Assembly (NCBI GenBank): GCA_020726185.1
Contig: DYTB01000009.1
Location: 1-46,866 of the forward strand
Source of the DNA: Candidatus Odyssella sp.
Lineage (GTDB): Bacteria > Pseudomonadota > Alphaproteobacteria > Paracaedibacterales > CAITNM01
DNA: 46,866 nucleotides
Reading direction: 5' to 3'
Shown: piece by piece, positions 14,927 through 16,345 of the stretch
How positions within the stretch are numbered: the first letter of the stretch is position 1
How the letters are laid out: each line of letters starts with the position of its first letter
Translations under genes and position numbers: made by a program
The notes under the pieces: model-generated
Databases searched by the model: none
What the model saw: the letters and a program-made list of their open reading frames with translations, nothing else
Told to the model about the DNA's origin: nothing

Positions 14927-16345
14927 TTAAGAATTGTAATAAAGTTCAAATTCTAAGGGATGAGGATGATGGGCCATTCTATAGAATTCTTTCCATTTCA
15001 TTTCTAAATGAGAATCAATCAGTTCTTTAGAAAACACGCCTGATTTGGTCAAGTATTCATGATCATTTTCTAAAGCTTGCAAAGATTCTTTTAAACAACC
15101 ACTTACCGTTGGTAGTGTTTTTGCAATGTCTTTATGTTCAAATAAATCAATATCTTGAGCATCTCCTGGATGAATACGATTTTGAATTCCATCAATGCCC
15201 GCTAATAACATTGCTGAAAAAGCAAGGTATGGATTCGCTGATGGGTCAGGAAAACGCACTTCAACACGCTTTGCTTTTGGTGAATGCACTACAGGAATAC
15301 GGCAAGTAGCAGAACGATTCTGTGCTGAGTAAGCGCAAATCACTGGCGCTTCATATCCCGGAATAAGTCGCTTATAGCTATTAGTAGTTGGGTTTGTGAA
15401 TGCATTTAAGCTTTTTGCATGCTTTAAAATTCCACCAATATAAAATAGCGCTGTGTCAGAAAGTCCAGCATAACCCTTGCCACTAAATAAGGGCTCTGAA
15501 TCTTTCCATAAGCTTTGGTGCACATGCATGCCTGACCCATTATCACCAAATACAGGTTTCGGCATAAATGTAGCAGTTTTACCATATGAACGAGCAACGT
15601 TTCTTACTACGTATTTGTATACTTGAAGTTCATCGGCGCCCTTAATAAGGGTATTATAAACAACGCCTAATTCATGTTGGGCAGGGGCGACTTCATGGTG
15701 ATGCTTTTCAACTCTCAACCCCATTTCAGCCATTTTCAGTAACATTTCTGAACGAATGTCTTGAGCCGAATCTAATGGTTGTACAGGAAAATACCCTCCC
15801 TTAGGACCGGGACGACACCCATGATTCTTAAGTGTTTCTTGCCCGTGAGTTTCACCATTTTGACTTGGGAACTCATCTGAATATATTTCGTATGATGTTT
15901 TTTCTGAACGCGTTTGAAATGCGACTCCATCAAAAATAAAAAATTCAGCTTCAGGGCCAAAAAATGCTTCGTCAGCTAGCCCAGTACTTTGTAAGTATTT
16001 CATACATTTTTTAGCAATTTGACGCGGGTCTTTTGCGTAAGGCTCTCCCGATTGCGGATGGTGCACATCACAAATAACAATAGCCGTTGGGTAAGACGAA
16101 AAAGGATCTAAGCGCACATTCTCCAAATCAGAACCAAAATCTGGCTTTAAAAGCATGTCCGATTCATTAATGGCACACCATCCGGCAATAGATGATCCAT
16201 CAAACAGTAAACCATTAGTGCACAAATCATCATCAACGGCACTGGTTGGATAAGTTATATGATGCCAGGTCCCTCGTAAATCGGTGAACCTAAAATCAAC
16301 AAATTCAACCTGGTGGTGTTTTAAAAAATCAAAAAAAGCTCGCAC
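14927..16345 (-). CDS. glnA: Glutamine synthetase, type I
   Basis: The protein has 472 residues. It makes glutamine from glutamate, ammonia and ATP as a dodecamer. Seen: beta-grasp FVDFRFTDLRG, FDGSSIAGW, catalytic EAEFFIFD, GSGMHVHQSLW, KRLIPGYEAPV, NRSATCRIP and the C-terminal HPLEFELYYNS. The adenylylation loop, NLYDLPPEE in E. coli, reads DIDLFEHKDIAK here: the target tyrosine aligns with Phe402 (codon 15140-15142). Regulation by GlnE is therefore unlikely, if the alignment of this loop holds. The start is GTG, chosen because the conserved domain begins at once. A TATAAT box lies only nine bases upstream. Confidence 0.96.
   Translation of the reverse strand: MRAFFDFLKHHQVEFVDFRFTDLRGTWHHITYPTSAVDDDLCTNGLLFDGSSIAGWCAINESDMLLKPDFGSDLENVRLDPFSSYPTAIVICDVHHPQSGEPYAKDPRQIAKKCMKYLQSTGLADEAFFGPEAEFFIFDGVAFQTRSEKTSYEIYSDEFPSQNGETHGQETLKNHGCRPGPKGGYFPVQPLDSAQDIRSEMLLKMAEMGLRVEKHHHEVAPAQHELGVVYNTLIKGADELQVYKYVVRNVARSYGKTATFMPKPVFGDNGSGMHVHQSLWKDSEPLFSGKGYAGLSDTALFYIGGILKHAKSLNAFTNPTTNSYKRLIPGYEAPVICAYSAQNRSATCRIPVVHSPKAKRVEVRFPDPSANPYLAFSAMLLAGIDGIQNRIHPGDAQDIDLFEHKDIAKTLPTVSGCLKESLQALENDHEYLTKSGVFSKELIDSHLEMKWKEFYRMAHHPHPLEFELYYNS

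What the first reader, a model, noticed from the sequence alone, without database searches (positions are those of the whole stretch)
15140..15142. Adenylylation tyrosine of glutamine synthetase replaced by Phe402
The loop that contains the modified Tyr in enteric GlnA aligns as DIDLFEHKD. Phe cannot be adenylylated, so covalent control by GlnE should be lost, as expected in a host-dependent bacterium with stable nitrogen supply. The alignment has one gap, so it needs a proper check.
Basis: partly seen in the sequence, partly recalled or inferred. Interest (0 to 1): 0.5.

Follow-up and report, generated by a model that had tools for sequence, protein, structure and literature searches.

The report
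Glutamine synthetase lacking its control tyrosine
The glutamine-making enzyme of this probably host-dependent bacterium has phenylalanine where most relatives carry the tyrosine used as an on/off switch, and the known switch-operating proteins were not found either, so it is most likely an intact enzyme without that switch, a loss already known from Helicobacter pylori.

Summary
Observation confirmed. Window 15140-15142 (minus strand, TTT) is Phe402 of an intact 472-aa type I glutamine synthetase (GlnA, 14927-16345), aligned with adenylylated Tyr397 of enteric GS. The one-residue gap lies after the site and is real: the loop is one residue shorter in all 31 sequences of its clade. GlnE, P-II and the GlnD/GlnE uridylyltransferase domain were found in 0 of 42 held genomes of the order (own included), so loss of covalent control is strongly supported. 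TLC-family matches in 38 of 42 support host dependence. In the order, 27 of 33 readable GlnAs have Phe and 6 keep Tyr; outside it, 44 of 45 GlnA-bearing genomes without any GlnE match keep Tyr, as do 61 of 61 GlnE-bearing ones read. Phe sits almost wholly in one GlnA clade with the remodelled loop, in a gene under strong purifying selection (dN/dS 0.03-0.06). Absence of the cascade is what abolishes control; Phe is a conservative change at a site that stays aromatic. H. pylori GS (NLF407KLT) is a published precedent. New member of a known kind; the open puzzle is why Tyr is kept elsewhere without its modifier.

The parts
14927..16345 (-). glnA, type I glutamine synthetase, 472 aa, GTG start, intact
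   Evidence: TIGR00653 617 bits against cut-off 429; PF00120 and PF03951; dN/dS 0.03-0.06 against five same-genus relatives
15140..15142 (-). codon TTT, Phe402, at the position of adenylylated Tyr397 of enteric GS
15110..15145 (-). remodelled adenylylation loop LFEHKDIAKTLP (residues 401-412), one residue shorter than LYDLPPEE-type loops
   Evidence: 9 residues between site 402 and the Pro412 column in 31 of 31 clade rows, 10 in 28 of 28 GlnE-bearing rows and in 46 of 52 other rows
16412..17551 (-). 379-aa ORF directly upstream of glnA, the place of glnB (P-II) in other alphaproteobacteria; no Pfam match, so not P-II
   Evidence: P-II lies next to glnA in 11 of 11 genomes that have both

Best explanation
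This is a GSI-beta-type glutamine synthetase, predicted active, that has left covalent adenylylation control. The PII-GlnD-GlnE cascade is missing from the order (shown as absence in the genomes held). The site of AMP attachment is Phe, which has no hydroxyl to accept AMP (established chemistry). In this GlnA clade the loop is one residue shorter and has lost the LPPEE sequence, with Phe at the site in 27 of 31 sequences (shown). The aromatic ring is kept because it packs in the loop beside the active site (inferred from conservation). Activity is then set by substrate supply, feedback inhibition or expression (inferred, not tested).
For: Phe at the aligned site. GlnE 0 of 42, P-II 0 of the same 42 (G000-G041 within the 58), PF08335 0 of 42; the same GlnE and P-II searches do recover hits in other alphaproteobacteria and in named control genomes. 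Residues recalled as catalytic or substrate-binding lie in invariant columns of 25 sequences: E132, E134, E218, E225, H274, E332, R344, R349, E362, R364. dN/dS 0.029, 0.040, 0.052, 0.045, 0.057 against five relatives. Precedents: H. pylori GS with NLF407KLT (PMC6076278, two passages); a Y397F E. coli GlnA that was expressed and used as a cryoEM specimen (PMC10710074, passage).
Against: No biochemistry. The genome is a 53-contig assembly, 94.67% complete, so absence in it alone would be weak; the order-wide absence carries the claim. Six order members keep Tyr without GlnE, so the residue does not report the presence of control. GlnA itself has no match in 6 of the 42 order genomes, so the enzyme is not universal there.
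Confidence: 0.88

Rival explanations
1. Neutral relic (a rival about why Phe is there, compatible with lost control): once GlnE was gone the Tyr hydroxyl had no use, and Phe is simply a tolerated one-base change with no effect on the enzyme.
For: Tyr and Phe codons differ by one base, and both residues occur in the clade (27 Phe, 4 Tyr); the fewest changes over the whole tree is 4, so the site can apparently change more than once.
Against: If fully neutral, Tyr should be lost often elsewhere, yet 44 of 45 genomes outside the order without any GlnE match keep it, and none of the 111 tree rows has a non-aromatic residue there, while in the 52 rows outside the clade the following loop columns vary by about 1-3 bits.
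Confidence: 0.45
2. The Phe substitution came first and made GlnE useless, so that the cascade decayed afterwards.
For: Phe and cascade loss coincide in the order.
Against: GlnE was not found in any of 42 order genomes, including the 6 with Tyr, and is missing from many Tyr-bearing genomes outside, so loss does not need Phe. No GlnE-bearing genome with Phe was seen (0 of 61 read).
Confidence: 0.05
3. GS is still covalently controlled, by another enzyme or at another residue.
For: None found; other modifying enzymes (for example Fic proteins) were not searched for, so it is not excluded.
Against: No Tyr in residues 386-425; no GlnE, P-II or PF08335 domain found.
Confidence: 0.05
4. Alignment or assembly artefact.
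For: The loop needs one gap.
Against: The gap lies after the site; phmmer, tblastn and MAFFT agree; the same-genus relatives share Phe, with TTT and TTC codons.
Confidence: 0.01

Closest known systems
Helicobacter pylori glutamine synthetase (NLF407KLT; PDB 5zli, 5zlp)
   Same: Type I GS with the GSI-beta insertion, Tyr of the adenylylation loop replaced by Phe, judged not to be regulated by adenylation (PMC6076278, two passages read)
   Different: H. pylori lies outside the Alphaproteobacteria (recalled); here the loop is one residue shorter than in GlnE-bearing relatives and the state is shared by most of an order
Enteric GlnA (Salmonella 2gls, 1f1h; E. coli)
   Same: Type I GS, aligned over query residues 7-471
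   Different: Tyr397 and LPPEE loop present; regulated by GlnE, PII and GlnD (PMC5626031 and PMC9249168, passages)
Plasmodium glutamine synthetase
   Same: Type I GS lacking the Tyr, in an organism without GlnE, GlnD and PII; no adenylylation detected (PMC10349072, passages)
   Different: Eukaryotic parasite, two peptide inserts, about 30% identity to bacterial GSI
GlnA of other alphaproteobacteria without GlnE
   Same: No adenylyltransferase match in the genome
   Different: Tyr kept in 44 of 45 read
PII-independent nitrogen response of 'Ca. Pelagibacter ubique' (Smith et al. 2013)
   Same: An alphaproteobacterium without PII control, by its title
   Different: Free-living; known to me here only as a reference-list entry, the paper is not held

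Membership tests
Type I glutamine synthetase (GlnA, TIGR00653) | Score over the curated cut-off and both GS domains | tested here: met
   617 bits against 429; PF03951 and PF00120 over cut-off
Type I glutamine synthetase (GlnA, TIGR00653) | Catalytic and binding residues conserved | tested here: met
   E132, E134, E218, E225, H274, E332, R344, R349, E362, R364 invariant in 25 sequences; their roles are recalled
GSI-beta subdivision | About 25-residue insertion (146-170 in Salmonella GS) | tested here: met
   Query aligns through this stretch of 2gls and 1f1h without a large gap; definition from PMC6076278
GSI-beta subdivision | Adenylylation motif NLYDLP with Tyr | tested here: not met
   DLFEHK, Phe402
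PII-GlnD-GlnE controlled GS | glnE, glnB and glnD in the genome | tested here: not met
   PF03710, PF00543 and PF08335 in 0 of 42 order genomes, own included
GS without adenylylation (H. pylori type) | No adenylylation of the purified enzyme | not testable with these tools
   Needs biochemistry

The most novel reading that the evidence does not exclude
Site 402 has a role in GS that does not depend on adenylylation: Tyr is held by selection in GlnE-less genomes, and in this host-dependent clade the role was rebuilt as a shorter loop with Phe, perhaps changing feedback sensitivity or kinetics, rather than decaying.
Probability: 0.25. Interest if true: 0.5.

Novelty: new member of a known kind. 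Interest (0 to 1): 0.3.

Why it matters
It gives a natural comparison of what happens to a protein-modification site after its modifying enzyme is lost: Phe in most of one clade, Tyr almost everywhere else that was read. That makes the question whether Tyr397 does more than carry AMP directly testable. It also shows an order of probably host-dependent bacteria in which 36 of 42 genomes keep a GlnA match while the nitrogen-sensing cascade was found in none.

Tried and rejected
Considered: misalignment (rejected, three aligners agree); sequencing error (rejected, shared with relatives using TTT and TTC); pseudogene (rejected, dN/dS 0.03-0.06, and no internal stop); missed GlnE through an incomplete assembly (rejected as sole reason: 0 of 42 genomes, 31 of them at least 90% complete and at most 5% contaminated); 'Phe is the expected fate after GlnE loss' (not borne out, 44 of 45 keep Tyr). 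A Fisher test of 27/6 against 1/44 gives p = 4e-14, but it ignores kinship: the Phe rows are essentially one clade, so it does not count independent events and I do not rely on it. The order of gain and reversal inside the clade was not resolved (fewest changes over the whole tree 4).

Rows dropped before counts. In the order: G008, G018 and G039 (GlnA fragments not covering the site) and six genomes with no GlnA match (G013, G017, G023, G025, G028, G040). Outside the order, GlnE-less or weak genomes with only short GS-like matches that I did not read: G089, G109, G243, G253 and G213, G297, G308. GlnE-bearing genomes not readable: G119, G127 (only matches of about 30-38% identity) and G131 (none). 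The tree left out L200 and L201 as short, never held G019 (partial) or G008, and used 28 of the GlnE-bearing GlnAs; that used 8 of them.

Taxon: could not be named.

Literature: searches on Holosporales-type names with glutamine synthetase or glnA, GlnE with endosymbionts, GlnE/PII loss in alphaproteobacteria and with genome reduction or symbionts listed no title or abstract start on this point; listings are capped (12 of 24 shown, 12 of 17). Of papers in these listings I saw passages of PMC6863919, a Rickettsiales parasite with glnA, PMC9249168 and PMC11909080, the Holosporales review, which has no occurrence of 'glutamine' or 'PII'. Searches served to find precedents.

Full report
Observation. 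The ORF 14927-16345 on the minus strand encodes a 472-aa GlnA. It scores 617 bits against TIGR00653 (cut-off 429) and holds both GS Pfam domains. Codon 402 is TTT at 15140-15142. Against Salmonella GS (2gls, 1f1h) and the other chains printed, Phe402 stands on the Tyr of NLYDLPPEE, and the only gap in the loop falls two residues later. tblastn and MAFFT on 111 sequences agree. No Tyr lies in residues 386-425.

The enzyme is otherwise intact. Residues recalled as catalytic or substrate-binding are in invariant columns of a 25-sequence alignment. dN/dS to five same-genus relatives is 0.029, 0.040, 0.052, 0.045 and 0.057 (three of the five dS values exceed 1 and are rough).

The cascade is gone. 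The window's genome (G000, 53 contigs, 94.67% complete) has no GlnE match. In all 42 genomes held of its order, GlnE (PF03710) is found in 0 of 42, P-II (PF00543) in 0 of the same 42 (G000-G041 within the 58), and the GlnD/GlnE domain PF08335 in 0 of 42. The GlnE search found a match over the cut-off in 180 of 289 genomes sampled from the class, and P-II in 12 of 58 and 27 of 53, so these two work in this class; for PF08335 the control is three named genomes. In the 11 genomes that have both, P-II lies next to glnA; here the upstream neighbour is a 379-aa ORF without a Pfam match.

Host dependence. TLC ATP/ADP transporter matches occur in 38 of 42 order genomes and in 0 of 14 control genomes. 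In G000 they are a strong match cut off at a contig end (C1) and a weak one split over two ORFs in the window; G002, G005 and G008 have only weak matches. Free-living alphaproteobacteria beyond the control set were not searched for it.

The residue in the order. 36 of 42 genomes have a GlnA match; 33 cover the site: 27 Phe, 6 Tyr. The six Tyr genomes (G011, G014, G021, G024, G032, G038) also lack GlnE.

The residue outside the order. I read GlnA of 53 genomes chosen as GlnE-less or weak (recounted): 45 with no GlnE match at E 0.001 (44 Tyr, 1 Phe: G169), 6 with only a match below the cut-off (5 Tyr, 1 Phe: G194), and 2 with a single match over it (G070, G110; both Tyr). The one strict exception, G169, has a GlnA that groups inside the order's own GlnA clade. 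Of the 53, 26 also lack P-II; 25 of these have Tyr and 1 (G169) Phe. GlnE-bearing genomes: 61 of 61 read have Tyr (47, 11, 3). With G070 and G110 that is 63 of the 180 over the cut-off; the other 117 were not read. In the named genome collection, of the best 80 loci kept out of 593 or more, 79 have Tyr and 1 Phe, the Phe being a same-genus MAG from Lake Pavin, probably the same record as G006.

One clade, one remodelled loop. On trees built without the loop columns, 30 order GlnAs and G169 form one group (SH-aLRT 96 with LG+G4; 88 as printed after re-rooting with the mixture model). All 31 have 9 residues between the site and the Pro412 column, against 10 in 28 of 28 GlnE-bearing rows and 46 of 52 others. 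Phe is at the site in 27 of 31. The fewest Tyr/Phe changes over the whole tree is 4. Leu401 is invariant in the clade and the site is always aromatic, while several other loop columns carry 1-2 bits of variation. In the 52 rows outside the clade that are not GlnE-bearing rows (mostly GlnE-less; G070, G110 and the two f2 rows are among them) the site has 0.14 bits while the loop columns after it carry about 1-3 bits. Family f2 of the order (G011, G024) has a different, long-loop GlnA with Tyr that falls outside this clade.

Interpretation. Shown: Phe at the site, loop shortening, absence of the three control proteins from the genomes searched, purifying selection on the gene. Follows from established knowledge: Phe cannot accept AMP. 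Inferred: GS here is not adenylylated and is governed by supply, feedback or expression; the aromatic ring is kept for structure.

Known. H. pylori GS has NLF407KLT and was judged not to be regulated by adenylation (PMC6076278, two passages read). Plasmodium GS lacks the Tyr, GlnE, GlnD and PII, and no adenylylation was detected (PMC10349072, passages read). So the kind is known; this lineage's membership, the short loop and the comparison with Tyr-keeping GlnE-less relatives are what this work adds. Paper searches and their limits are listed in Tried and rejected.

Noticed in passing
window 1045-1671 and 1689-2474, +: A weak TLC ATP/ADP transporter relative is split over two ORFs matching profile 17-197 and 238-491, while seven same-genus genomes have open frames of 465-494 aa with similarly weak scores; probably a broken gene or an assembly fault.
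   Followed up: partly
window 17663-18049 and 18131-18568, +: A family 2 glycosyltransferase match ends early (profile 2-122 of 168) and a second ORF without a Pfam match follows; may be a split gene.
   Followed up: no
window 9520-10200 and 10185-11528, +: Prolyl oligopeptidase (S9) catalytic domain in the second of two overlapping ORFs; the first has no Pfam match and may be its displaced N-terminal part.
   Followed up: no
GlnE-less alphaproteobacterial genomes, among loci L133-L162, L191-L211: Tyr at the adenylylation site is kept in 44 of 45 genomes with no GlnE match, and in 25 of the 26 of those also without P-II; its retention without a modifier is unexplained.
   Followed up: partly
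L047 (G011) and L048 (G024): Two order members carry a divergent GlnA (50-51% identity to the window's, long loop, Tyr) that groups outside the order's main GlnA clade; transfer is possible.
   Followed up: partly
order genomes G013, G017, G023, G025, G028, G040: No GlnA match at all, four of them at 95-100% completeness, so glutamine synthetase has apparently been lost outright in part of the order.
   Followed up: no
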